Shown in pieces: positions 1 to 53,696 of a stretch of 53,838 nt of DNA. Below the pieces are notes generated by a model, which did not search any database, was not told where the DNA came from, and worked only from the letters and a program-made list of their open reading frames with translations. Every line of letters starts with the position of its first letter. Within the stretch, counting starts at the first letter, position 1. Both the position numbers and the translations under genes were made by a program. The stretch comes from Spirochaetes bacterium ADurb.BinA120 (GTDB taxonomy: Bacteria; Spirochaetota; UBA4802; UBA5368), in the NCBI GenBank assembly GCA_002069125.1, contig MVZN01000016.1, forward strand, positions 1 to 53,838. Direction: 5' to 3'.

Positions 1-1920
1 CCATACGGTGAAAAGGCTCCCCTTGCAGGGCATGCTGACGGCGCTTATGCGCCCGCCGTGCATCTCCACAAGCTGGCGGGTGATGGCGAGGCCCAGTCCC
101 ACCCCGCCGTGCCGCCTGGTGTCGGCCGTTTCGAGCTGGCGGTACGGGTTCCAGATGTGCGCCATGTCCTCGGATTCTATGCCGCAGCCGGTGTCGCGCA
201 CCGCGATATTGACGCCCTCGCCCTCGGTGTGCGCCGTCAGCGTCACCTCACCCTCGTCGGTGAACTTGACCGCGTTGGCCAGAAGGTTGAGCAGTATCTG
301 TTCAATGCGGTGCCGGTCGCCCACGATGACCGGGAGGTTTTCGCCCACCTCGACGCGCACGGTGACCGGTTTATCGCCCGTCAGAACGCCGGCGAGCGAG
401 GCCAGACCGTTCAGGAGCGACTCTATGTCGACCTCCTCCACCAGGAGGTCCACCCGCCCGGCCCGGAGCCTGCTGAAATCCAGAATGTCGTCCACAAGGC
501 GCGCCAGGCGGTCGGCGCTCCGGCGGATGATGGAGAGGCCCTCCCTCTGCTTTTCGGTGGGCGGCTCGTCCGGGCTGGTCTCCATGATCTCCGCCATGCC
601 CGAGATGGCGTGCAGGGGCGTGCGCAGCTCGTGCGAGGTGGTGGCCAGAAACTCGTCCTTCATTTTGTCGATGACGAGGAGGTCGTCGTGCGCCTTTTCG
701 AGAGCAGTGTGGACCTGTGCGAATCGGGATGCGAGTGCGGTCGAAAAAACAAGGGCCATCGCGAAAAACCCTTCCATAATGATTGGGTCATTCCCATAAC
801 TTAGAAAGGAAATTGAACTATACGCCAAGCTGACTATAATTAGCAGATGTCCGAATAAAAGCCTGTATGCAAATGGTTTTTTCAACCGGACAGCTTTCAC
901 ATTAATGTAAATAACGCAGAGTATATAAACAGCATTCAAATTGATGAACACATTGTAAATATACTTATTAAAATAATAAATACCGCCAGTGGCAAAATGC
1001 TCCACGACTACGAGAACCGCCATAATATAATAAATGATTGTATAAACTGAAATGAACGTATTCTTCTTAATTCCGTGATACTCATACAGGAAATTAAGAG
1101 CTGTCGTTATTGATAAAATTCCACCGATGTAAGTTAAAATATTAAAAACCAATTGATTGTCTACAAGGTAAAATCCCAATCCCGTAAAGCCAAGTGCCCA
1201 TAAGGCCAGCGCCATGCACAGGCCGGAAAACGATAAATAAAACAAGTCATGCCTTCGAGCCAGAAAGAAGAGAAAGAAAAATGCAGATAAAAAAATAGCT
1301 ACTATCGATAACGATGCATATAGCATCATATATCGCGCCCAGTACTTTTTAACCGCATCCGGTGATCCGATTAATATGGAGCTCATGAAACCACCCCAGC
1401 CGTCGATAGAGGCGGTTTTTATGGCAAGAAGGTTCTTACCCTCAAAGAGAAAGCTTGAGGGAATACTGACCAGTTCCGGCTTGCTGGCGATGGGTTGTAC
1501 AAATCCATCGAGGGAATACGGGCGAGTTTCGTGAAGCAAGATACCGTTTATATATATCTGGGAGCCTCTTTTCCCCAAGGGCAACATAAGGAAATAATTT
1601 TGAGGAGTTTGGAGAATAATTTCGAGTCTGAACCAGCCGACGTTATAATCTTTATCCGAGGGGTAATACCGTTTCCAAATGCTTGGATCATTGATTTTTT
1701 CATAAAATTCCTGATCGTATTTAGCATCTGCATCTTTGTATCTGGAGGAACCATCAGGGATGAATTGCCATGTACCGGCAAGCTTTATTGTGGAAGTAAT
1801 CGCATCCTGAACAGCAATTAGCCCGTCCGATACAGATACCGTTCCATGGACGGGCGAACTTGGCAAAACTAGTGCGACGAGAAGTAAAAACGGCAGTATT
1901 TTACAAGTATCAGTAGCCAT
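1..1920 (-). CDS. 7TM (DISM-type) sensor histidine kinase, 3' end cut by window edge
   Basis: Reading from the ATG at 1920 down to base 1 gives 640 uninterrupted codons with no stop, so the C-terminus lies outside the window. The first ~26 residues look like a signal peptide. Residues ~45-180 resemble the periplasmic jelly-roll 7TMR-DISMED2 ligand domain, followed by about seven hydrophobic helices (~195-400) and a HisKA/HATPase module. Visible motifs are the H box TTSHELRTPLHAISG, the N box LLNLLANAVKFT, G1 RDTGCGI and G2 GGVGLGLAIT, so the kinase core looks active. It should sense an extracellular ligand at the inner membrane and phosphorylate an unseen response regulator. The start overlaps the stop of the upstream small gene (ATGGCTACTGA), implying translational coupling. 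Base composition is AT-rich over the sensor half and GC-rich over the kinase half. Confidence 0.85.
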   Translation of the reverse strand, partial: MATDTCKILPFLLLVALVLPSSPVHGTVSVSDGLIAVQDAITSTIKLAGTWQFIPDGSSRYKDADAKYDQEFYEKINDPSIWKRYYPSDKDYNVGWFRLEIILQTPQNYFLMLPLGKRGSQIYINGILLHETRPYSLDGFVQPIASKPELVSIPSSFLFEGKNLLAIKTASIDGWGGFMSSILIGSPDAVKKYWARYMMLYASLSIVAIFLSAFFFLFFLARRHDLFYLSFSGLCMALALWALGFTGLGFYLVDNQLVFNILTYIGGILSITTALNFLYEYHGIKKNTFISVYTIIYYIMAVLVVVEHFATGGIYYFNKYIYNVFINLNAVYILCVIYINVKAVRLKKPFAYRLLFGHLLIIVSLAYSSISFLSYGNDPIIMEGFFAMALVFSTALASRFAQVHTALEKAHDDLLVIDKMKDEFLATTSHELRTPLHAISGMAEIMETSPDEPPTEKQREGLSIIRRSADRLARLVDDILDFSRLRAGRVDLLVEEVDIESLLNGLASLAGVLTGDKPVTVRVEVGENLPVIVGDRHRIEQILLNLLANAVKFTDEGEVTLTAHTEGEGVNIAVRDTGCGIESEDMAHIWNPYRQLETADTRRHGGVGLGLAITRQLVEMHGGRISAVSMPCKGSLFTVW

Positions 1921-2158
1921 TCTTGACGCTGACTAAATCACCATATTTAACGATGCCCTTCTTGCCAGCGATTAATTTTTTACAATCCTCCAGCGAGACA
2001 CCGTCAAACTTCACTCCGTCAGTTCTGCTTTGCCCATGGAACCATTCCATCAGCTTTGTTGGGTCATCTATGCCCTTTATCGCCTGGACCAAATCATTAC
2101 CCAGATTATTCCCATCCTCAGTCGCAGCGGCCGCTACATAATCAACAAAATCTGCCAT
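1910..2158 (-). CDS. Small 82-residue protein coupled to the sensor kinase, faint Nif11-like resemblance
   Basis: The start ATG at 2158 has a good ribosome binding site (AGGTAGT, 5-11 bases upstream). The protein is short, acidic to neutral, without a signal peptide or membrane segment. Its pattern (FVDYV near the N-terminus, WFHGQ in the middle, VSLEDCKKLI near residue 55-64) faintly recalls Nif11/NHLP-type small proteins, including a single Cys in an EDCKKL context, but there is no double-Gly cleavage motif and I do not assign it to that family. The stop codon overlaps the kinase start by 11 bases, so the two are made together. It lies in the same AT-rich patch as the sensor half of the kinase. 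A partner or modulator of the kinase is an inference from position only. Confidence 0.65.
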   Translation of the reverse strand: MADFVDYVAAAATEDGNNLGNDLVQAIKGIDDPTKLMEWFHGQSRTDGVKFDGVSLEDCKKLIAGKKGIVKYGDLVSVKNGY

Positions 2159-2384
2159 ATACTACCTCCAATTATTCTATCAACATTGCACATAGCGCAA
2201 TCTCCATGCGAATTTAAGAAATTTGTCAACTCATTAATTATTTTAACTATTACAACTTATTGTCGTTAAGTAAACCATTAAAGGAAATTCAGTACGACGT
2301 TGAAGTCCTGATATAACTTCCGGATCGTTTTATTTCTCGCTTATTTATAACAAAAAACGATAGTATATACTCTTAGAAAAACAT

Positions 2385-3422
2385 ATGAGGAATTCCGACA
2401 TCACCATCGTCGGAGCGGGCCCAGCCGGCGCCGTTCTCGCCGCCGGGTGCGCCGCCGCGGGCATGCGGGTGCTGCTCTTCGACCACCGCGCCCCGTGGGA
2501 AAAACCATGCGGCGGGATGCTCGGCCCCGGCGCCTTCGAGGAATTCGACTATTTTACGGCGTACCCCCACCCGGTATATTTCTCGACCGCGCTGCGCTGT
2601 ACCGGTCCCCGGTCCAACGAGTCGATCAGGCCGTCGGAGCGCCCCTTTCCCGTTCTCTCGCGGCAGGACCTGGGCGAATACCTTATCGACCGCGCCGTCC
2701 GATGCGGCGCTCGCTTTGTCAGCGAGCGGATCGTACGCCTCGACCGGGGAAAAACGGGCTGGTCGCTCAGCACGGGTGAAAGCACATACGCGGCAAGCCT
2801 TGTGGCGGGCGCCGACGGAGTCCGGAGCATGGTGCGCGCGAGCGTCGCCACCCCCATCCCGCGCCCGCACCGCTCCCTGTGCTGCGGCTATACCGTCCAA
2901 GGCGCGCGGCCGGAGCATCCGCTTATCCGGTGTGAAGACCTCAGGGGCTACCTGTGGCTTTTCGACCGCGGAACGCACCAGAGCGCCGGCATCCTTTCAC
3001 GTATGGGCGATCTCGGCGTGACCGCGCTCTTAGCCCGCCTGGACGACTTTCTCGCCCGCGAACACCCTTCCGCGCGTGCCGTCTCACGCTACGCGGCGCT
3101 CATCCCCTCGGTGTGCGACCCGGCCTTCTTCGACCTTCCCTGCGCGGGCGACGACTGGCTCCTCCTCGGCGACGCCGCGGTCCACGTGGATCCGCTGACC
3201 GGCGAGGGCATCCGCTACGCGCTCGCGGGGGCGCGCTGCGCGGCAGGCAGCCTTATCGACGATAATCCGCGCTCCTACGACGAGTCCTGGCGCGCGGCCT
3301 TCGGGGACCTTCTCCGCGCAAAGGCCTCCCACCTGGCCCGCATGGACGCGCTCGCCGAGGCCTTCGGCACCGAGATGTACGATGCGCTGCTCTACTCCCA
3401 TTTCGCGGGCGACGGCGCCTGA
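2385..3422 (+). CDS. FAD-dependent oxidoreductase, geranylgeranyl reductase family
   Basis: The 345-residue protein starts with a Rossmann dinucleotide fold (IVGAGPAGAVLAAGCAAAG, residues ~6-24) and has the PCGGM motif (~residues 46-50) typical of geranylgeranyl reductase-like flavoproteins. A second FAD contact, LLLGDAAVHVDPLTGEGI (~residues 263-280), matches the GDA...P..G.G motif of the group. Family members saturate isoprenoid chains or act as related monooxygenase-like oxidoreductases; the substrate here cannot be read from sequence. The ATG at 2385 gives the standard start just before the nucleotide-binding strand, although no clear Shine-Dalgarno sequence precedes it. It stands 147 bases before the TPR gene cluster and is very GC-rich, in sharp contrast to the AT-rich sequence just upstream. 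Confidence 0.82.
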   Translation: MRNSDITIVGAGPAGAVLAAGCAAAGMRVLLFDHRAPWEKPCGGMLGPGAFEEFDYFTAYPHPVYFSTALRCTGPRSNESIRPSERPFPVLSRQDLGEYLIDRAVRCGARFVSERIVRLDRGKTGWSLSTGESTYAASLVAGADGVRSMVRASVATPIPRPHRSLCCGYTVQGARPEHPLIRCEDLRGYLWLFDRGTHQSAGILSRMGDLGVTALLARLDDFLAREHPSARAVSRYAALIPSVCDPAFFDLPCAGDDWLLLGDAAVHVDPLTGEGIRYALAGARCAAGSLIDDNPRSYDESWRAAFGDLLRAKASHLARMDALAEAFGTEMYDALLYSHFAGDGA

Positions 3423-3569
3423 ACGGAAGCCATCATCACCCCCTGTTTTTTGCGTTTACAGGTGAAACGATCCGTGCAGTATAGTACCTTGAACGAAGAA
3501 GGGGCTTCGGCCGCACGGATGTTCAGCCTGGCCCCCTTAATGACGATAGGTGTAAAGGGAAGCTGCACG

Positions 3570-4295
3570 ATGAGAGGCATAAAGACCATAATCCTTATAG
3601 CGGCTCTCGCGCTCTCCGCTGGAGTGTCCCCGGCACAGCCCGGGGCCAAGGCGAAGAACGCCCCGGAGGACGACGGCTTCAAGAAGGCCACCGCTTACTT
3701 CTACGAGCGGAAGTTCGAGATGGCGGAGATCCTTCTTCAAGAGGAGCTTAAAAAGAACCCCGAAAACCGGCTGGCCTATTCATACCTTGGCGACATCTTT
3801 CTCCATAAAAAACGCCTGGATGGCGCCATGGAGCTTTATAAAAAGGCCCTGGAGCTCGATCCCAAAAGCGCCGAGGAATATTTCAGGCTGGGCCAGATTT
3901 ATTACTATAAGAAAGAGGCCGCCCCGGCAGTGCAGAACTTCGAGCGCGCCTTCGGTCTGGACAAAAAAATCAAGTATGCGTATTATCACATCGGCCTGAC
4001 CCATCTCATGCTGGAGCGCGACAAGCAGGGGACCATCGCCAGTTGGGAGAAATACCTCGCCATGGCTCCCGAGGACCCTCAATACGAAAAGATTCGGCGC
4101 GCCATAGAACTCCTTAAAGACCCCAATTTCGTTCTGCCTCCGGTGGGAAGCGATATCTCCATAGAGGAGGCCCTGCACCTGGGGGGCGCGGTGCTCCGCG
4201 AGACCGACCGCAAGGCCGAGGACAAGGCCGCGGGCCACGAGGCCAAAAAAACCAAATCGAAGCTTGAAGACATATACCGCGACGACGGACTCTAA
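3570..4295 (+). CDS. Secreted TPR-repeat protein (241 aa)
   Basis: An upstream in-frame start at 3450 is possible, but the ATG at 3570 has a ribosome binding site (AAAGGGA) and begins a clear signal peptide (positively charged MRGIK, hydrophobic IILIAALAL, then SPAQP). The mature part carries about three to four TPR units (for example residues ~50-150, with the repeated pattern AYSYLGDIF... ALELDPKSAEEYFRLGQIYY). The last 60 residues are charged and probably disordered. TPR proteins act as protein-binding scaffolds; here it is probably periplasmic. Seventeen bases separate it from the next, much larger TPR gene, so the two are very likely co-transcribed. The binding partner is unknown. Confidence 0.85.
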   Translation: MRGIKTIILIAALALSAGVSPAQPGAKAKNAPEDDGFKKATAYFYERKFEMAEILLQEELKKNPENRLAYSYLGDIFLHKKRLDGAMELYKKALELDPKSAEEYFRLGQIYYYKKEAAPAVQNFERAFGLDKKIKYAYYHIGLTHLMLERDKQGTIASWEKYLAMAPEDPQYEKIRRAIELLKDPNFVLPPVGSDISIEEALHLGGAVLRETDRKAEDKAAGHEAKKTKSKLEDIYRDDGL

Positions 4296-4311
4296 ACGGG
4301 GAGGCGTAAAC

Positions 4312-6711
4312 ATGGCATCATTCCGCAGGGACAACACGGCGCGTAACATTGGAATCGCCGCGCTCATTCTGCTGCTTCTGGCCGGCGGCGCCTATCTAAT
4401 CTATCGGAGCGCGGCCGACCCGCTGCGCGATATCGAAGACCTTCGCGTAAAACAGATCGGTCTGTACGAAAAGCTCCTGGAGACCGACCCGTCCAACGTG
4501 GACATCCTTGTCAAGATCGGGAACCTCTACAAATCGATCGGGGGTATCGACCGCGCAATAGACTACTATAAAAGGGCCCTGGCAATCGACCCGGACAATT
4601 ACGCCGCGCTGAACGAGCTGGGACACGCATACGCGCTTAAGGGCGACTACGAGAAGGCCATCGCCGCGCTGGAACGCGCCAAGCGCGCCTTCCCAAAAAT
4701 GCCGGTTGCCTACAACAAGCTGGGCAACGTTTACGACGACCAGGACAAGCTCGACGCCGCGCTGCGTGAATACAAGAAGGCCGTGGCCGTGGCACCGAAG
4801 TACCAGGAGAGCTACTGGAACATCGCCCGGCAGCGCCTTAAAAACGGCGATCTGCGCGGCGCAATCGATATTTTAAAGAAGGGCATAAAGGAGAATCCGA
4901 ACGATCCGGAGGGCTACTACAACCTGGGGAACCTCTATATGCGGGCGCGCGATTACGGAAACGCCCTCAAGAACTTCGAGAAGGCGGCGGACATCGATCC
5001 TCGCGTGTCGAAGTATCACCGCGGCGTCGGCGAGGCCGAGCTTAGAAGGGGCAATACCGACAGGGCCATAGCCGCCTTCATGAAGGCCCTTCAGGCCGAT
5101 CCAGGCGACGCCCTCGCCGCTGAGCGCCTGGGCGACATCTACGCCAGGGACGCCGACTATCCCGGCGCGGTGAAGTACTACCGGCAGGCGCTTACCAACA
5201 ACAGCCGCGATAAAAACCTCCAGCGCAAGTACCTCGCCGCGCTTGCCAAGCTTAGCGGCTCCGGGCGGATAGCGTCGCGAGGCGACGGTGGCTCGCGCCT
5301 CGACGGCGAAGGGGCCGGCGACGGGCCGGGCGGCGACCGGGTGGCCGGCCGTCGCGACGTAGGCCCGCGCGCCGACATGGGCGAGGACCCGGGCGAGAAG
5401 ACGTCCCGACCGCCCGAAACCAGGGGCGACGGGGCCAGGTGGCGCGAACTCGGCGACCGCTACCGCGACGCCAAGGACTATGATAACGCTCTTAAAGCCT
5501 ACGGCAAGGCGACCGAGATCGAACCGAACGACGACTACTCCCACTACTGGCGAGGACGAATATATTACCACAACAAGCTGGATGAGGAGGCCCAAAAATC
5601 CTTTGAAAAGGCGGTGGTGGCCAATCCCAAAAACGCCGATTCGCATTACAGGCTGGGGCTTATCCACTATATGAACAACAGATTCGACACGGCCCTTCGC
5701 CATTTCAACAAAGCGGTGGAGATTCAACCCGACTTCCCGCGCGCCTATTACTCGCGCGGCCTGACCCATTACAAGCTGAACGACCAGGCCAGGGCCATCA
5801 ACGATCTGAAGACATCCATACGGCAGGACCCAAAACTGGACCGCGCCTATTTCAATCTGGGCGATATCTATTTGAAGAGCAAAAACTTTTCCGAGGCGCT
5901 CGCCCAGTTCTCCAAGGACCGCGAGCTTAGGCCCAACAACCCCGACACCAATTTCAAACTGGCCGAGACATACCATGAGATGAAGTCGTACAACAACGCC
6001 GCGCAGTTCTACCAAAAGACCATCGAGCTCGATCCCAATTACTTCCAGGCCTATTTTAACCTAGGACTTATAAACGCCGAGAAGAGGCAGTACCGCGAGG
6101 CCATCACCCTCTACCAGAAGGCCCTGTCCATCAAGAGCGACGATTACGCCACGCTCTACGAGCTGGGCAAGGCCCACGAGGCGCTTAAGGACGACAATGC
6201 CGCCATAGAGTATTATTCGAAGGCCATCGCCAAGAACCCCAATTACGCCAAGGCCTATATCAACCTTGGAAACCTCTATTCCCGGAACAACCTCAACGAC
6301 AAGGCCATTCAGCAGTACAGGCTGGCCGCGTCCAATGACCCCAGGTCCTACGACGCGCACTACAACCTGGCTAACGCCTACCGCGAGGCCAAGCTCTACG
6401 ACGAAGCGATCGAGGAGTACAAGACCGCGCTCGAGATAAACCCCCTCGACTCGAAGGCCCATTTCTTCCAGGGGATCGCCTACCGCGACAAGGGCGTCTA
6501 CGAGGACGCGGCGCGCGCCTTCGAGCGCTCGGTGCAGATCAACAAGAGCAACTGGCAGGGGCATGAGGAGCTTGGAATGATATACTACCGCAGATTAAAG
6601 GACAAGCAGAAGGCCATAAGCAACTTCGAGCGGGTGCTGGCCCTGAAACCCGACCACCCGAACGCTGACAAGATACAGGATATCATCGGGCTTCTTAAAA
6701 AGGAGCCGTAG
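4312..6711 (+). CDS. Large membrane-anchored TPR protein (799 aa)
   Basis: The ATG at 4312 follows a good GGAGG ribosome binding site (4300-4304). Residues ~14-34 form one N-terminal membrane anchor (IALILLLLAGGAYLIYR-like). The rest is almost entirely TPR units: a first block of about eight repeats (residues ~50-320), a charged, Gly/Arg/Asp-rich linker without TPR character (~residues 320-375, nt ~5270-5440), and a second block of about eleven repeats to the C-terminus. Repeats show the classic pattern with Y..LG, A...Y..AL and P.N..A. The protein is probably a periplasm-facing scaffold anchored in the inner membrane. It sits between the small secreted TPR gene and two lipoprotein genes, suggesting an envelope complex; that role is inferred. 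Confidence 0.88.
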   Translation: MASFRRDNTARNIGIAALILLLLAGGAYLIYRSAADPLRDIEDLRVKQIGLYEKLLETDPSNVDILVKIGNLYKSIGGIDRAIDYYKRALAIDPDNYAALNELGHAYALKGDYEKAIAALERAKRAFPKMPVAYNKLGNVYDDQDKLDAALREYKKAVAVAPKYQESYWNIARQRLKNGDLRGAIDILKKGIKENPNDPEGYYNLGNLYMRARDYGNALKNFEKAADIDPRVSKYHRGVGEAELRRGNTDRAIAAFMKALQADPGDALAAERLGDIYARDADYPGAVKYYRQALTNNSRDKNLQRKYLAALAKLSGSGRIASRGDGGSRLDGEGAGDGPGGDRVAGRRDVGPRADMGEDPGEKTSRPPETRGDGARWRELGDRYRDAKDYDNALKAYGKATEIEPNDDYSHYWRGRIYYHNKLDEEAQKSFEKAVVANPKNADSHYRLGLIHYMNNRFDTALRHFNKAVEIQPDFPRAYYSRGLTHYKLNDQARAINDLKTSIRQDPKLDRAYFNLGDIYLKSKNFSEALAQFSKDRELRPNNPDTNFKLAETYHEMKSYNNAAQFYQKTIELDPNYFQAYFNLGLINAEKRQYREAITLYQKALSIKSDDYATLYELGKAHEALKDDNAAIEYYSKAIAKNPNYAKAYINLGNLYSRNNLNDKAIQQYRLAASNDPRSYDAHYNLANAYREAKLYDEAIEEYKTALEINPLDSKAHFFQGIAYRDKGVYEDAARAFERSVQINKSNWQGHEELGMIYYRRLKDKQKAISNFERVLALKPDHPNADKIQDIIGLLKKEP

Positions 6712-6722
6712 GGACGAAACCC

Positions 6723-6752
6723 TTGACAGAGGGGCGGTATGCTGTAGCATAC
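6723..6752 (+). promoter_or_regulatory. Sigma-70-like promoter with a palindrome over its -10 box
   Basis: A perfect -35 box TTGACA (6723-6728) is separated by 16 bases from a -10 candidate TAGCAT (6745-6750). A perfect inverted repeat, GTATGCT-GT-AGCATAC (6737-6752), covers the -10 box and the end of the spacer, the usual place for a repressor site. It lies just upstream of the two lipoprotein genes and would let them be transcribed apart from the TPR genes. Confidence 0.5.
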
Positions 6753-6769
6753 GAAACTGGACAGGCATC

Positions 6770-7330
6770 ATGGACGGGATTTTAATGAACGCAATAACAC
6801 ATCTCTCAGCCCGCCTTATAGCGGTCCTCGCCGTAGCCCTTGCGCTCGCGCCGGTATCGTGCGGCATCCGCGTTATCGACGCCTCGTCGGTGCTCGACGA
6901 CTTCCGCACCGAGGGCTTTCTGGATCCGGACCATTTCCAGGTGATCGTAAGGGGCGCCCCGGCGCCCGGCGCGCGCGGACTGGTCGCCCGGCGCGAGAGC
7001 GCCCTTATTGCGGCCGAGTCGAAGATACCGGAAGCCGTAGCGGACGCAGTGGGCACATACCGGCTCGAGTGCCTGCTCCGCCGCCTCGAGCCGGCCGACC
7101 GGCCGCTCGTTACAAACCTGGAGCAGGTTCGCGCCGAGCTGTGGAAGGAGGCGGCCGGCTACGTGCGATACGGCCGCCGCGCCTTCGAGTACTACAACGA
7201 GGACCATTCGGCGGTTATAGTGTACCGCATCTACCGCGGCGGTCTTCGCGCATCATTCGAATCCGTAGGCCCGAAGCTCGCCCTTCCGGAGCCCCACAGG
7301 GCCACGGATACCTCTCCCACGAAAGGATGA
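6770..7330 (+). CDS. Small lipoprotein, paralogue of the next gene
   Basis: The 186-residue product has an N-terminal hydrophobic stretch ending in a lipobox-like LAPVSC (Cys at residue ~31), which predicts a lipoprotein. An internal ATG at 6785 is an equally good start. The mature part contains the pattern F.TEGFLDPDHFQVIV (~residues 43-60), an Ala/Arg-rich helix, and near the end VIVYRIYRGGLR. The same order of elements occurs in the next gene, so the two look like diverged tandem duplicates. I do not recognise a named family; there is some likeness to LPP20-type lipoproteins in layout only. It overlaps no neighbour and is separated from the next gene by four bases. Confidence 0.72.
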   Translation: MDGILMNAITHLSARLIAVLAVALALAPVSCGIRVIDASSVLDDFRTEGFLDPDHFQVIVRGAPAPGARGLVARRESALIAAESKIPEAVADAVGTYRLECLLRRLEPADRPLVTNLEQVRAELWKEAAGYVRYGRRAFEYYNEDHSAVIVYRIYRGGLRASFESVGPKLALPEPHRATDTSPTKG

Positions 7331-7334
7331 CCGC

Positions 7335-7793
7335 ATGAAACCCCGCACATCGGCAGTTTTTCCCGCCATGCTCATCTGCGTTCTGGCCTTCGCCCTCGCC
7401 GATCAGCGCTGCTCGAAGGAGGTGCGCCAAATGGACCGGCCGGATATATGCCCGCCGTCCATCGGCGATGGCCCGCGCATCGAGTTCGAGAAGGAGGGGT
7501 TCATCTCGGCCGACCTGTACCGCGTCGTCATAGTCGAGCCGGAGGACGACGCGGGCGCGGCCTTCGCGGAAAAGACCGCCCGAATACGCGCCCTGGGCTC
7601 GCTCCAGAAGTATCTTCAATCGAAGGACATGGTAATCGATCATAACGTAACGGCGCGACTGCTAGCCCTCATAGAGGAGAGCGGGCGGCTGGTCAGATCG
7701 ACCTCCGAGGGCGGTGCCCGTTGCGTGTATTATTTCGATATTTCGAGGCCGCGCCTTTCGGACTACGTGTTGTCCATTTCGAGGAAAAAGTAG
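7335..7793 (+). CDS. Small lipoprotein-like protein, paralogue of the preceding gene
   Basis: The 152-residue protein begins with a signal-peptide-like stretch (VFPAMLICVLAFALAD) followed by QRCS, a lipobox that lacks the usual small residue at -1, so lipidation is uncertain. The mature part repeats the layout of the upstream protein: FEKEGFISADLYRVVIV (~residues 50-66), a helix rich in Ala and Arg, and a C-terminal VYYFDISRPRLS. The ribosome binding site AAAGGATG overlaps the end of the upstream gene, so the pair is co-translated. Function unknown. The gene ends 10 bases from the convergent PilZ gene. Confidence 0.7.
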   Translation: MKPRTSAVFPAMLICVLAFALADQRCSKEVRQMDRPDICPPSIGDGPRIEFEKEGFISADLYRVVIVEPEDDAGAAFAEKTARIRALGSLQKYLQSKDMVIDHNVTARLLALIEESGRLVRSTSEGGARCVYYFDISRPRLSDYVLSISRKK

Positions 7794-7803
7794 GAAGGAG
7801 CGC

Positions 7804-8457
7804 CTACCCGCCGTTACGGTAGATGTAATATGCCAGGTTCTGGAAGATGAACATCTCGAGCTTCTCACGGTGCTCGTCGTAAATGCTGCTGAACATCACC
7901 CCCACCCCGTAGTTGTCGGAGCTCAGCCTGTCCACACGCACCACCATCGCAAGCGCCTCGATGTCGCGAAGGTCCTCGTCCACTGCCGACAGGTCGATAT
8001 GGACCCGTATGATGCTGGAAATCTCTATCGGCTGGCCGAAATTGAAGTAGAACCCGCCCTTGCTGATATTGACGAGCGTGCCGACGAAATCGAAGGCCTC
8101 CGTTTCGTCGCTCGACGACTCTATCAGCGTTTCGACGACGCGGACCGGCACCTCGATGTCCAGGCGGAAATGCCTGCGCCGAACGCTGGCCCGGCGATCG
8201 GGGCCTCGTTTGCCGGTCTTTTCCGGATCGACCTCTACGCGGGGATGGCGGCGGCGTTCCACCAACCTCCGATCGCGCTTGTCGCGTCCGGCGTAGTTCT
8301 GCACCATCCATGTGTCAAATTCCTTCTCGAACCACAAAAGCATCGCCTCTTCCCTGGAGGCTGATTTGCCGGCAGCCCGGATTTCCTCGAAATAGCGCTC
8401 TATTTCCTTTTTGATTTCCGATGAAAGCTCTTCGTATTTAATATAATTCCGGTCCAT
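7804..8457 (-). CDS. PilZ-domain protein (c-di-GMP receptor)
   Basis: The ATG at 8457 is chosen because GGAGGACAG directly precedes it; a longer reading to 8481 lacks such a site. The 217-residue protein has a helical N-terminal part (~1-60) and a C-terminal PilZ domain with the c-di-GMP signature: RRRHFR at residues ~93-98 and NISKGG at ~130-135 (N.S..G). A second copy of the Arg motif, RRRHPR, sits at ~68-73. PilZ proteins bind c-di-GMP and pass the signal to motility, envelope or polysaccharide machinery by contact. Output cannot be read here. The gene is transcribed away from the amidase gene across a shared AT-rich intergenic region. Confidence 0.85.
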   Translation of the reverse strand: MDRNYIKYEELSSEIKKEIERYFEEIRAAGKSASREEAMLLWFEKEFDTWMVQNYAGRDKRDRRLVERRRHPRVEVDPEKTGKRGPDRRASVRRRHFRLDIEVPVRVVETLIESSSDETEAFDFVGTLVNISKGGFYFNFGQPIEISSIIRVHIDLSAVDEDLRDIEALAMVVRVDRLSSDNYGVGVMFSSIYDEHREKLEMFIFQNLAYYIYRNGG

Positions 8458-8625
8458 CTGTCCTCCAGCGGCGGGGAGCAACCCTTTAGGGCCATGCCCG
8501 GCGCGGTCGCGCTTAAACCGTTTGCGTGAACACGGTCGGATCGAATTTTCGAAACGGGTTTTTTTGAAGCTTTATCCCGGCCGGCTTTCTTTTAACAATA
8601 TCTCGGTAAAAATGCAATTATTTTC

Positions 8626-8654
8626 TTGCAAAAGGAACGATATTATTATTATAA
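8626..8654 (+). promoter_or_regulatory. Putative sigma-70 promoter of the amidase gene
   Basis: TTGCAA (8626-8631) and TTATAA (8649-8654) are spaced by 17 bases in an AT-rich stretch about 60 bases before the amidase start. The -35 box is part of the string TTTTCTTGCAAAAGG, which recurs near two other promoters in the window. Confidence 0.45.
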
Positions 8655-8715
8655 ACAATCATTATACTTTTATTCAGCGTCCGCACGGCGGCCGCCACGG
8701 AAGACAGTCCGCCAG

Positions 8716-10473
8716 ATGAAGGTACAAAAAAGAGCACTCTTTGCGCCAAACGCCGTCATCGTCGCCGCTATCCTGCTCATTTCGGCCGTGTCGCGGGCTG
8801 AAGAGCAGCCGGCGTACAGCACGGTCGGCCAGCCCGACAGCATAAGCGCCATCCTCTCCAAGGAAAACAATATCGTCTATCTGAAGCAGGCGATAGAGAT
8901 ACTCAACGCCATCGACGCCACCTATGTAGATATCGAGAAGAGCCTTGCCTCCGGCAAAAAGCTCGTCGTTTTTGTTGACCCTGCGCACGGCAAGCTCGAA
9001 AACGGCGCCTGGGAGGGGGAGATGACCGGCCGCCTGAGCGCTACGGGCCTGCCGGAGGAATATTACTCCATCATGCTCTCGCGCGAGCTCTATCGCGTCC
9101 TTTCAGCGAACCGCTTCATCGAGGTCAGATCCACCGATGACTTCATGCGGGTCATGAGGGGAAAAAGCGATATCTACCGCAATATCCCCTTCGTCGAGAC
9201 GGTGCGCATGGCGACCGAGGCGGGCGCCTTCATCATAGTCAGCGAGCACCTCAACAACATCTCGTCGATCGTGAAGGCAAGCGGGCTTATGAACATTCCC
9301 GGAGTTCATATCACCACCGACAAATGGGGCAACCGCTTCCTTTCGTACGTGAAGGACATCCATCGCGGATTTCTCACGCTCTACAACAAGTACGACGCCA
9401 CCGACTTCTCCAGGCGGTACGCGCTCAACCTGAAGGAGGCGCTGGTCGCCCGGGGAATGCGCGCCAACAACTGGCAGTTCGGCGCCGTACCCGACGACCG
9501 GTTTTCCTATTTCGTTGACTTTCCCATTTCGGTGATCTACGAGTCCGGCTTTATCTCGAATCCCGACGACGAGGAGTTTCTAAGGGACCCGGCAAACCAG
9601 CGGCTTATAGTCTCCGGGCAGTACGAATCGCTCCTCGATACGGTCCGCGAGGTCTTCGGCGTGGACATTTCGGGCAGGACCCCGGAGCGCGTCGGGAAGG
9701 CCCCCGCGGAACTCATCGAGCTCCTCAAGCTCTCGCGCCTGGTCATATTCTACATCAATAACTGCGAGGCGCAGAAGGCGATCGGAATTATAAATCTCAT
9801 GGAAAAGAGGTTCGCGTCCATCAACCCGCTGTTCGTGGCCCCTTACCGCGAGATCAAGACCACTCTTGTCAGAGCCGAAAATTTCTTCCGCCAGGGCATG
9901 GCCCACCTGAAAAAGAAGAACTACAAGAGCGCCACATGGTGCCTTCAGCGCGCCAGGCGGACCCTGCGCTACCGCCCGCTTTACTCGCAGCTCTACGCGC
10001 GTTACTCGGGCCAGTACCAGGAGATGGGCGTACCCGGACACGCCGTGGACCTCTTTGTGTACAACCCCAGGAAGCTCCCGCCGGCCGGCGCCTCGCGTCC
10101 CGCGCCTCCGCTCGTGCCTGTTCGTTCGGCCGCGCTCACCACTCCGATAATCTTCGCGGTAGACGGCGACCAGACGCTTGAAAACGCCGTGTACAAGGCG
10201 CTCAAACCCGACAAAAAGACCCTCGAGCGGCTGGTACGCTCCTTCGAGAACGCTTACACCTGGAAGAGCGTTAAATCCGGCGGCAAATGGCGCAAGGTCC
10301 GCGTGAAGGCGCAATTCGGCCCCGGCATATACATCGTAGGGCTGGACCGAAATCTGAACGTGGTGTCGGTATCACCGGTAAAGAAGGTCGCGCTTAACCC
10401 GGCAAAATACCAGAACCACCAGTACCTTAAAAACTCGTACTTCGCCCTTGAAGAAAAAGAACGTTCGCTCTGA
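8716..10473 (+). CDS. N-acetylmuramoyl-L-alanine amidase (Amidase_3 type) with long C-terminal extension
   Basis: From the ATG at 8716 the protein has 585 residues with a signal peptide (to ~residue 28). The catalytic domain spans ~80-340. Candidate zinc ligands are His91 (in VDPAHGK), Glu115/116 before the following helix, and His178 (SEHLNN); the catalytic Glu is probably 276 in YESGFISNPDDEEFL. This fits the Amidase_3 fold, which cuts the amide between MurNAc and the stem peptide in the periplasm. The core is longer than usual, with an insertion around 185-240, and the ~240 C-terminal residues (helical, then a basic Pro-rich part) match nothing I recognise. It overlaps the next gene by 26 bases. 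An ATG further upstream is absent; other in-frame TTG starts are less plausible. Confidence 0.85.
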   Translation: MKVQKRALFAPNAVIVAAILLISAVSRAEEQPAYSTVGQPDSISAILSKENNIVYLKQAIEILNAIDATYVDIEKSLASGKKLVVFVDPAHGKLENGAWEGEMTGRLSATGLPEEYYSIMLSRELYRVLSANRFIEVRSTDDFMRVMRGKSDIYRNIPFVETVRMATEAGAFIIVSEHLNNISSIVKASGLMNIPGVHITTDKWGNRFLSYVKDIHRGFLTLYNKYDATDFSRRYALNLKEALVARGMRANNWQFGAVPDDRFSYFVDFPISVIYESGFISNPDDEEFLRDPANQRLIVSGQYESLLDTVREVFGVDISGRTPERVGKAPAELIELLKLSRLVIFYINNCEAQKAIGIINLMEKRFASINPLFVAPYREIKTTLVRAENFFRQGMAHLKKKNYKSATWCLQRARRTLRYRPLYSQLYARYSGQYQEMGVPGHAVDLFVYNPRKLPPAGASRPAPPLVPVRSAALTTPIIFAVDGDQTLENAVYKALKPDKKTLERLVRSFENAYTWKSVKSGGKWRKVRVKAQFGPGIYIVGLDRNLNVVSVSPVKKVALNPAKYQNHQYLKNSYFALEEKERSL

Positions 10474-51731: not shown

Positions 51732-53696
51732 ATGAAACACTTGCTGCGCGCACTCGTCCCGCTCTTCTTCGCCGCGGCCCTGCATGCCCAGGAGGAGGCT
51801 CCCGGCGCCGGTAGCGATGAAACCGGGAGGCCCGAAGAAAAGGTCTTCATTTCCAAAGAGATCATCGTAAAGGACAAAAAGGAACAGGCGGGCGTCGTCT
51901 CGATCATCACCGACAAAGAGGTAAAAAACTCCACCAAAACCGATCTTATCAATGTCATAAACCAGAATGTTCCGAGCTTCTACACGGGTAACAACCGGGT
52001 GATGGGCTTCGGCGTTTCCGCAAGCGGCTCGGCAGTCATCTCGATCCGCGGTATAGGCAAATCTGGCTGGGGCCCCACCACGGGCGTGCCTTTTCTCATA
52101 AACGGGCTCGACACCACCACCTCGATAATGGGCCACCCCATAGCCGACGTTTTCACCATGAAGAACATCGACCGCGTCGAGGTGCTTCACGGCCCCCAGC
52201 CGGTCCTTTACGGCTCGGGCGCGCTCGGCGGAGTCGTGAACATTATCACCAAGCGCCAGGAGTACGACGGCTATTCAACCGAGATTTCAGGATCCTATGG
52301 AAGCCATAACTCAACCGACGATTACGTAATTCACCAGGGCAAGATGGGGGTCTTCGATTACGGCGTCTCGTATAACTTTCAGTATACCGACGGCCACCGC
52401 GAGCAGACAATACTCGGCCAGAAGTATACATCGGAATACCTTAATCACAACGCAACAGCACGTTTTGGTTTTGAAATCGGTAACAACTGGTATGCTTCTC
52501 TGAATTCTTATTATATGAAAGAAAAAATCAATGACCCGGGAGCAGATGGCATGACATCCTTCCCTCCCGGACCTCCAATAGGTCAAGATCTAGAGATATT
52601 TGATATATCTCGCCGGGGAATTTCAGTGAATGTGTTAAACACATATGAAAAAATTGAAGGAATGTTGCATGTCTATGCAAATCACGGAAGACATGAAACT
52701 GATAAACCTCGTCTAGACATATCAACATATGAGCACGATGACTATTTATATGGTGCACGTATTGTGGAATCGGTAAAGCCGTTTAAAGGAAACAAAATTA
52801 CAGCAGGTGCTGAAGTTCGTCATTTTGGTGGTACTGCAAAAAATCCGAATTCAGTCCTTTTCCCATGGCAAACTGATTCTTATTACGTCAAAGACAAATT
52901 TCTTACAGATGTTTCGGGCTTCGGGCTTGTCGAGCAGAGAATTTTTGATATAATTACCCTCTCGGGTGGAGCGCGATATACTGACAACTCAAAATATGAC
53001 GATTTCGTCTCATGGCAGAGCGGCATAATAATAACACCTCTGCCAACAACAAAAATATACTCATCAATAGCCCGCGGTTTTAAGCTTCCAGAGCTTCGCC
53101 AACTATATTTATATGGCCCGTATCCTGCAAAAAATCCAAATCCCGATTTAAAAGCCGAGACATACCTATCTTACGAGGCAGGCATTGAACAGGTTTTACT
53201 TAAATCTCTGGTGGTATCCGTAACAGGGTATAGGATTCAATCTGACAACAAAATAATCCCAACCGATGGGTGGCCGGCAAATACGTGGGCCAATGCTGAT
53301 AAATATAATTACAACGGCCTCGAGGCGACGGCGAAGTACACCATAATGAACATGGTGGGGCTACGCGCCGGATACTCCTACATAGACAACGAGTACCGCA
53401 AGGCAAAATTAGCCTATGTGCCCAAGCACAAGGCTCTCGGAGGAATTTCGTTCGAGAGCTTCGGCCTCTACGCCGGACTCGACAGCGAATACGTCTACGA
53501 TGTCTACGCCGATACGGCCGGCAAACAAAAATTGTCGAATTACCTCGTTCTAAACGCGAAGCTCGCTTACACCTTCTTGGAACGCTATCGGGCATTCGTG
53601 AACTTCAACAACATCACCGACAGGAAATATGAAACCTTCTGGGAATACCCGATGCCCGGTTTCACGGTTATGGGAGGCCTTTCGGCTACCCTGTAG
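51732..53696 (+). CDS. TonB-dependent outer-membrane receptor
   Basis: ATG at 51732 follows GGAGG. The 654-residue protein has a signal peptide (to ~19, HAQ), a plug domain (~residues 50-175, with RGIGKSGW, DRVEVLHGPQPVLYGSGALGGVVNII) and a 22-strand-type barrel with a C-terminal strand ending FTVMGGLSATL. It takes up a siderophore, cobalamin or similar ligand; which one is not readable. No TonB, ExbB or ABC transporter is adjacent. Roughly nt 52440-53310 is AT-rich with different codon use, while the plug and the last barrel strands are GC-rich, which suggests a recombined middle section. Confidence 0.92.
   Translation: MKHLLRALVPLFFAAALHAQEEAPGAGSDETGRPEEKVFISKEIIVKDKKEQAGVVSIITDKEVKNSTKTDLINVINQNVPSFYTGNNRVMGFGVSASGSAVISIRGIGKSGWGPTTGVPFLINGLDTTTSIMGHPIADVFTMKNIDRVEVLHGPQPVLYGSGALGGVVNIITKRQEYDGYSTEISGSYGSHNSTDDYVIHQGKMGVFDYGVSYNFQYTDGHREQTILGQKYTSEYLNHNATARFGFEIGNNWYASLNSYYMKEKINDPGADGMTSFPPGPPIGQDLEIFDISRRGISVNVLNTYEKIEGMLHVYANHGRHETDKPRLDISTYEHDDYLYGARIVESVKPFKGNKITAGAEVRHFGGTAKNPNSVLFPWQTDSYYVKDKFLTDVSGFGLVEQRIFDIITLSGGARYTDNSKYDDFVSWQSGIIITPLPTTKIYSSIARGFKLPELRQLYLYGPYPAKNPNPDLKAETYLSYEAGIEQVLLKSLVVSVTGYRIQSDNKIIPTDGWPANTWANADKYNYNGLEATAKYTIMNMVGLRAGYSYIDNEYRKAKLAYVPKHKALGGISFESFGLYAGLDSEYVYDVYADTAGKQKLSNYLVLNAKLAYTFLERYRAFVNFNNITDRKYETFWEYPMPGFTVMGGLSATL

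What the first reader, a model, noticed from the sequence alone, without database searches (positions are those of the whole stretch)
1..1920. Sensor kinase gene is a composition mosaic: AT-rich sensor, GC-rich kinase
From the start codon to about nt 770 the gene is AT-rich with many AAT, TAT and ATT codons; from there to base 1 it turns GC-rich like the chromosome. The switch falls at the border between the 7TM region and the HisKA domain. This looks like a foreign ligand-sensing module joined to a resident kinase core, that is, recent domain swapping. Natural membrane-protein bias alone does not explain the AT richness of the periplasmic domain and of the small gene beside it.
Basis: partly seen in the sequence, partly recalled or inferred. 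Interest (0 to 1): 0.55.

Follow-up and report, generated by a model that had tools for sequence, protein, structure and literature searches.

The report
Swappable peptide sensor on conserved kinase
A bacterial sensor gene is a true patchwork: its AT-rich outer half, apparently together with the tail of a small peptide gene beside it, differs between species while the signalling half stays the same, which looks like an uncharacterised cell-to-cell peptide signalling system with many 'dialects'.

Summary
GC changes 0.66-0.39-0.69 at nt 743 and 2395; the first boundary is where the seven-helix sensor meets HisKA. The AT-rich patch covers the sensor and the 82-aa gene upstream. Homology to a congener's same locus stops at the same places (735, 2396): kinase 97.6% identical, flank 84.9%, island none. 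Sensor and kinase trees conflict (1 of 14 splits shared; AU tests reject each other's pairing), so sensors are exchanged. But 13 of 17 family genes show a GC step of at least 0.20, so AT-richness is a lasting property, not a sign of recent foreign arrival. The small gene belongs to a family: 26 of 28 copies precede such a sensor, and the same 26 end in tyrosine. In the order it co-occurs with a radical-SAM enzyme (17 of 46 genomes have both, 3 only one) and a prenyl-synthase-like protein. Peptide-tail similarity follows sensor similarity. Best reading, inferred and untested at the bench: a modified-peptide signal with a polymorphic 7TM receptor kinase, working like ComQXP but not a member of it.

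The parts
1..735 (-). Conserved GC-rich transmitter part (HisKA at nt 457-663, HATPase_c at nt 1-321); truncated by the contig end. In G003 a receiver and a SpoIIE-type phosphatase follow.
   Evidence: Pfam; 97.6% nt identity to G003 over 1-735; full-length relatives 1093-1118 aa
736..1920 (-). AT-rich, exchangeable sensor: signal-peptide-like start (by eye), extracellular beta domain, 7TMR-DISM 7TM (nt 724-1305)
   Evidence: Pfam PF07695, 32 bits over its 29-bit cut-off; low-confidence AF2 model, outer domain nearest to GH2-type sugar-binding domains, best E 2.5e-3
743..2395 (.). AT-rich island (GC 0.39) between GC-rich flanks; no blastn match to G003's island
   Evidence: Change points; blastn gap 736-2395
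1910..2158 (-). Small protein of 82 aa, proposed modified-peptide precursor; it overlaps the sensor's start by 11 nt, so probably translationally coupled
   Evidence: Sequence; family alignments A2, A3; profile search
1979..2158 (-). N-terminal (leader-like) part of the small gene, 0.70-0.87 identical to G006 in 30-nt bins
   Evidence: Sliding identity
1913..1978 (-). C-terminal (core-like) part of the small gene, 0.43-0.53 identical to G006 over 60 nt (the last codons identical), ends in Tyr; varies with the sensor
2385..3422 (+). Geranylgeranyl-reductase-like flavoprotein, divergent neighbour; also near the peptide in G003, G001 (about 3 kb off), G002, G034, G027
   Evidence: TIGR02032 at 145 bits, cut-off 158.8; HMM map, whose model was built from five of these six

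Best explanation
The locus is a polymorphic peptide-signal and receptor-kinase unit. The small gene encodes a precursor with a leader-like part and a variable tail that ends in tyrosine. A radical-SAM enzyme and a prenyl-synthase-like protein (in relatives just beyond the kinase or opposite the peptide gene), and perhaps the flavoprotein at 2385, modify it. The product leaves the cell and is bound by the extracellular domain and 7TM part of the sensor, which drives HisKA to receiver to SpoIIE-phosphatase output. Because tail and sensor must match, they are exchanged as a unit by homologous recombination in the conserved flanks (leader or flavoprotein gene on one side, HisKA on the other), giving signalling 'dialects' as with ComX/ComP. 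SHOWN by sequence: the mosaic, homology breaks, tree conflict, gene neighbourhood, co-occurrence, tail-sensor co-variation in a small set. INFERRED: modification, export, binding, and specificity as the selective reason.
For: Homology breaks at 735 and 2396 coincide with GC change points 743 and 2395. Against G006 the break lies inside the peptide gene, near its last 20 codons. Sensor/kinase identity is 28%/99% for G000-G003 and 66%/75% for G000-G004. Trees share 1 of 14 splits. 26 of 28 peptide genes lie upstream, on the same strand, of a sensor-bearing ORF; the two that do not are the two lacking the terminal Tyr. Peptide and rSAM are both in 17 of 46 order genomes, peptide only in 2, rSAM only in 1, neither in 26 (Fisher 1.6e-9, not corrected for kinship). 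In G203 and G379, of other orders, the peptide keeps its sensor and an rSAM; the partner was found only in G203. The genome's other 8 7TMR-DISM genes have no such peptide beside them. Tail similarity follows sensor identity (Mantel r 0.84; partial 0.79 given kinase); the leader follows the kinase more (0.79; partial with sensor 0.40); n = 9 genomes.
Against: No bench data. The peptide has no convincing Pfam or NCBIfam family (Nif11 leader 2 of 26 members, best E 0.017 and 0.094). Exporter and protease genes were not searched for. The partner's prenyl-synthase identity is weak (PDB best E 0.016 and 0.02; hhalign E 7e-4 and 0.0018 at probability 26% and 15%; AF2 model unusable). The outer domain looks like sugar-binding domains. 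The window's genome lacks a detectable rSAM and partner, which may lie past the contig end. G004 keeps the kinase although its peptide gene lacks the usual start and stop and its rSAM is a remnant. Tail-sensor co-variation rests on few close pairs; the tail also correlates with the kinase (r 0.68; partial 0.57 given sensor).
Confidence: 0.6

Rival explanations
1. The sensor is a carbohydrate (or other environmental ligand) receptor under diversifying selection; the small gene is an unrelated modified peptide that happens to share the operon.
For: Outer domain matches GH2-type sugar-binding domains in a low-confidence model; Glyco_hydro_2_N at E 2.7e-4, below cut-off, in the G379 sensor.
Against: 26 of 28 peptide genes sit beside such a sensor; tail and sensor similarity track each other; homology to G006 breaks inside the peptide gene.
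Confidence: 0.15
2. The peptide is mainly an antimicrobial, and the kinase senses it for autoregulation or self-protection.
For: Radical-SAM and other tailoring genes beside a small precursor are usual for such peptides (established knowledge); precursor-receptor pairs can do both jobs.
Against: Output is a SpoIIE phosphatase or, in G031, a neighbouring LuxR-type regulator, which is regulatory rather than protective. Immunity and export genes were not searched for, so this is weak.
Confidence: 0.17
3. One-off recent acquisition of an AT-rich foreign sensor by this species.
For: Composition step and homology break.
Against: 13 of 17 family genes, this one included, have a step of at least 0.20, among them the congener with the same sensor type.
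Confidence: 0.04
4. Metagenome assembly chimera near nt 735-743 at the contig end.
For: The contig begins inside the kinase, and 1-735 is 97.6% identical to another species whose flank is 84.9% identical.
Against: The frame is continuous, and a step of at least 0.20 at the same junction occurs in 12 other genes from 11 other genomes. A chimera could still explain the 97.6% stretch alone.
Confidence: 0.04

Closest known systems
ComQXPA quorum sensing of Bacillus (PMC4008528, passages seen)
   Same: Peptide precursor most variable at its C-terminus, sensor N-terminus variable and cytoplasmic kinase conserved, a dedicated isoprenyl transferase (here a weakly similar protein), polymorphic communication groups. 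In G031 the kinase is of HisKA_3 type with a LuxR-type regulator beside it.
   Different: 7TMR-DISM receptor with an extracellular beta domain, HisKA plus receiver plus SpoIIE output, a radical-SAM partner, C-terminal Tyr instead of a Trp near the end, partner genes often divergent, a different phylum; no Pfam match to the ComX or ComQ families seen.
7TMR-DISM receptors (PF07695)
   Same: 7TM domain over the Pfam cut-off, plugged into diverse outputs: HisKA hybrid, PAS-HisKA_3, SpoIIE directly (there 26.3 bits, under the cut-off of 29)
   Different: The 11 papers listed (titles and abstract starts only) showed none with a linked peptide gene; here peptide and sensor co-vary.
Radical-SAM modified peptides (mycofactocin, Nif11-class)
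   Same: Small precursor plus an rSAM protein with CxxxCxxC and further conserved Cys; NCBIfam hits include the mycofactocin and nif11-class maturases. Mycofactocin's precursor also ends in Tyr (recalled).
   Different: The best NCBIfam scores shown for the two rSAM proteins scanned are far below cut-offs; a linked sensor kinase and prenyl-synthase-like partner.
agr and ComCD pherotype loci (recalled; ComCD papers seen as titles)
   Same: Co-varying signal and receptor sensor on a conserved kinase
   Different: Different receptor and output; AgrB-like or double-glycine export genes were not searched for.

Membership tests
7TMR-DISM receptors | PF07695 domain above gathering score | tested here: met
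   32 bits against 29
ComQXPA | ComX precursor family PF05952 with Trp near the C-terminus | tested here: not met
   Window peptide matches no ComX model; PF05952 is not among the 25 of 27 families printed for the 26 members; 24 of 26 end in Tyr and 2 of 26 have a Trp in the last 12 residues
ComQXPA | ComQ, PF00348 isoprenyl transferase next to the peptide | tested here: inconclusive
   Partner has both Asp-rich motifs (13 and 14 of 15) and weak PDB hits, 8 of 8 prenyltransferases with the 15-row profile, but no Pfam hit (1 member scanned); not found in the window's genome
ComQXPA | ComP with HisKA_3 and a LuxR-type response regulator | tested here: not met
   Window has HisKA PF00512; met only in relatives G031 (both) and G038:C33 (HisKA_3; regulator not looked for)
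ComQXPA | Peptide tail and sensor polymorphic, kinase conserved | tested here: met
   Between species; not tested within one species
Nif11-like leader peptides | TIGR03798 / PF07862 match | tested here: inconclusive
   2 of 26 members each, best E 0.017 and 0.094; the window's own peptide does not match
Mycofactocin-type rSAM peptides | TIGR03962 maturase above cut-off | tested here: not met
   79.9 and 45.9 bits against 265 for two members
Quorum-sensing system | Secreted signal activates its own receptor in a density-dependent way | not testable with these tools
   needs bench work

The most novel reading that the evidence does not exclude
A peptide-pheromone system of an uncultured spirochaete-phylum order, separate from ComQXP: tyrosine-ended peptides matured by a radical-SAM/prenyl-synthase-like pair, sensed by 7TMR-DISM receptors that plug into several outputs, with signal tail and receptor exchanged as one cassette. 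A further guess: frequent recombination in the flanks is why kinase and flavoprotein genes are so GC-rich (GC3 0.86 and 0.83 against a window mean of 0.73) while the non-homologous cassette stays AT-rich, so a GC step inside a receptor gene would mark pherotype loci.
Probability: 0.45. Interest if true: 0.88.

Novelty: new variant of a known kind. Interest (0 to 1): 0.78.

Why it matters
Pherotype switching is known to me mainly from Gram-positive bacteria. A comparable cassette with a 7TM receptor in the spirochaete phylum would show that the same evolutionary solution arose with other parts, would give these receptors a candidate ligand class, would add a possible modified-peptide family, and would turn a composition step into a search signal for signal-receptor pairs.

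Tried and rejected
Simple membrane bias: rejected, GC3 shifts too and the other 8 7TMR-DISM genes of the genome have higher 7TM GC3. A duplicated kinase elsewhere in the genome: only short DNA matches of 74 and 84%. The rest of the kinase gene elsewhere in the assembly: no close match, other hits are 20-43% identical. AF2 of the partner from one sequence: pLDDT 47.6, unusable. AF2 of the sensor from three sequences: pLDDT 59.6; best Foldseek hit E 2.5e-3, none at 1e-3. Contig ends inside the locus as a sign of strain variation: 7 seen against about 3.9 expected by my own rough sum (not a tool result; noted), not significant, dropped. The TonB receptor as a second swapped gene: G003 and G006 orthologues align over its whole length at 73 and 71%, so not the same case, although its composition patch is not shared.

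Rows dropped. The first regression (n=10) missed genes with another H-box spelling, one search used n=11, n=16 (G006 left out, flank under 2 kb). The three give the same contrast: kinase GC follows flank GC (r 0.83, 0.94, 0.78), sensor GC does not (r 0.24, 0.29, 0.34). G023 (split frame), G002, G009 and G035's second locus (truncated sensors) and G379, G031 and G038:C33 (other transmitters) were not put in the trees; G036's sensor row lacks its N-terminus. The Mantel test used 9 genomes; G003 and G001 (two peptides each) and G203 (not in A3) were left out. The sensor profile was built from 12 of the genes, which match by construction; the sensors in L170, L172, L174, L176 (two), L177, L179, L181, L183, L184, L185 and L257 were not in it.

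Full report
OBSERVATION. The gene runs from 1920 to base 1 on the minus strand and is cut by the contig start. GC change points are 743 and 2395, with GC 0.66, 0.39 and 0.69. Pfam places 7TMR-DISM_7TM at aa 206-399, HisKA at 420-488 and HATPase_c at 534-640. The GC3 step of 0.46 is the largest of 24 window ORFs that I picked as genes and that were long enough; each half alone is matched by stretches of other genes. The 8 other 7TMR-DISM genes of the genome have 7TM GC3 of 0.50-0.76 against 0.40 here.

THE SAME LOCUS IN RELATIVES. Of 8 genomes of the family searched (own included), 6 hold a match to the sensor, that of G002 weak. Full-length genes in G003, G004, G006 and G001 run to 1093-1118 aa with the same step at the same place; the G003 protein is 7TM, HisKA, HATPase, receiver and SpoIIE. 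Window against G003: flank 2396-9442 is 84.9% identical, kinase 1-735 is 97.6% identical, 736-2395 has no match; against G004 the match runs through the sensor at 72.3%, flank 79.5%. Identity to G003 is 0.93, 0.93, 0.90 in the first three 300-nt bins beside the island, then varies between 0.70 and 0.91. Against G006 the small gene is 0.70-0.87 identical over its first part and 0.43-0.53 over 60 nt near its end, and kinase nt 601-700 are identical.

TREES. Sensor/kinase identities are 28/99% for G000-G003 and 66/75% for G000-G004. With 12 rows, sensor data reject {G000,G003} (p-AU 1.3e-4) and kinase data reject {G000,G004} (3.9e-4); genus monophyly of sensors is rejected only marginally (0.047). 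With 17 rows the trees share 1 of 14 internal splits and the two tests give 8.8e-7 and 2.5e-3. Several deep sensor branches are weakly supported, so the split count overstates conflict; the AU tests carry the claim.

COMPOSITION. 13 of 17 genes (16 genomes) have a step of at least 0.20. The four without are three in AT-rich surroundings (flank GC 0.39-0.42) and G203 of another order (step 0.03). Kinase GC follows flank GC (n=16, r 0.78), sensor GC does not (r 0.34, p 0.19). AT-richness is therefore a lasting property of the module in this order and does not date the exchange.

THE SMALL GENE. It overlaps the sensor's start by 11 nt. Its profile finds relatives in 19 of 46 genomes of the order and, with a larger profile, in 23 of 392 of the phylum, 19 of them in this order; of the four outside, two (G203, G379) were fetched and two weak ones (G106, G239) were not. 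In the mapped loci, 26 of 28 copies lie upstream on the same strand of a sensor-bearing ORF. Of these, four copies share two sensors as tandem pairs (G003, G001), the sensor is cut by a contig end in L174, L177 and L179 (in L174 it starts about 0.8 kb away, in L177 the match is weak), and G006's peptide and sensor lie on two contigs that overlap by 141 identical bases. 24 of the 26 copies in A3 end in Tyr, as do the two outside-order copies: 26 of 28, and the two without Tyr (one in L181, the one in L182) are the two without a sensor. No known family matches convincingly.

PARTNERS. The radical-SAM protein (E <= 1e-40) occurs in 18 of 46 genomes and the ~330-aa partner (E <= 0.001) in 18 of 46, one of these weak. 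Peptide and rSAM coincide in 17, peptide only in G000 and G004, rSAM only in G033 (Fisher 1.6e-9); peptide and partner coincide in 16, peptide only 3, partner only 2 (1.2e-7); kinship is not corrected for. In G003 and G006 the rSAM lies just beyond the kinase, past the point where the window's contig ends. G004 has an rSAM remnant and an altered peptide gene. The partner carries two Asp-rich motifs (13 and 14 of 15). With the 15-row profile its PDB hits, 8 of 8, are prenyltransferases, all weak (best E 0.02); with 8 rows 7 of 11 hits were (best 0.016). A flavoprotein of the geranylgeranyl-reductase superfamily lies beside the locus in the window and in or near it in five relatives.

OTHER OUTPUTS. 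In G031 and in one locus of G038 the sensor sits on PAS-HisKA_3 kinases, in G031 beside a LuxR-type regulator; in G379 directly on SpoIIE.

CO-VARIATION. Over 9 genomes, tail similarity follows sensor identity (r 0.84; partial 0.79 given kinase); leader similarity follows the kinase more (0.79; partial with sensor 0.40). The tail also keeps a correlation with the kinase (0.68; partial 0.57 given sensor). Numbers are small and a few close pairs weigh heavily.

LITERATURE. ComQXPA (PMC4008528, passages) shows the same pattern: variable ComX C-terminus, variable ComP N-terminus, conserved cytoplasmic part. Searches for 7TMR-DISM with radical SAM (0 papers), 7TMR with peptide pheromone (2, listing only), spirochaetes with RiPP and quorum sensing (21, 15 listed) and rSAM/isoprenyl/quorum sensing/kinase/RiPP, any four (16, 15 listed) showed no title or abstract start describing this system; the library holds open-licence papers only. 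PMC1592074 (passages) covers 7TMR-DISM and the signalling helix.

TAXONOMY. G027 of the same order is identical over 10 kb to JAFGJK010000020.1, titled 'Spirochaetes bacterium'.

VERDICT. The mosaic and sensor exchange are shown. The peptide-signal reading is the best-supported explanation but is inferred.

Noticed in passing
window 51732-53696 (+): TonB-dependent receptor whose barrel middle (about codons 240-540) has GC3 0.25-0.45 in this genome, while the G003 and G006 orthologues (73 and 71% identical) have 0.52-0.78 there: a second, species-specific composition patch.
   Followed up: partly
window 1-735: Kinase part 97.6% identical to G003 against 84.9% in the flank: recent exchange between species, or a chimeric contig end.
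   Followed up: partly
L046 10870-11180 and 7309-7441: G004's peptide gene lacks the usual ATG and stop, and an rSAM remnant remains downstream of the kinase: the system looks decayed while the kinase gene stays open.
   Followed up: partly
L181 11126-11389 and L182 7053-7367: Two peptide relatives without terminal Tyr and without a sensor beside them; a FabH-like gene lies near the peptides of L181 (Pfam) and, by eye, of L179.
   Followed up: no
L257 6576-12528: In G379 (another order) the sensor is fused directly to SpoIIE and the peptide faces an rSAM, then a large protein that looks like a B12-type rSAM and a methyltransferase-like gene (both by eye).
   Followed up: partly
L176 4499-6782 and 13004-16581: G037 holds two peptide-kinase units about 6 kb apart; the sensor of one groups with G035, the kinase of the other with G038.
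   Followed up: partly
L259 2358-5106: In G001 an FGE-sulfatase-domain gene and, by eye, repeated short ORFs resembling mobile-element remnants lie between the peptides and the flavoprotein gene.
   Followed up: no
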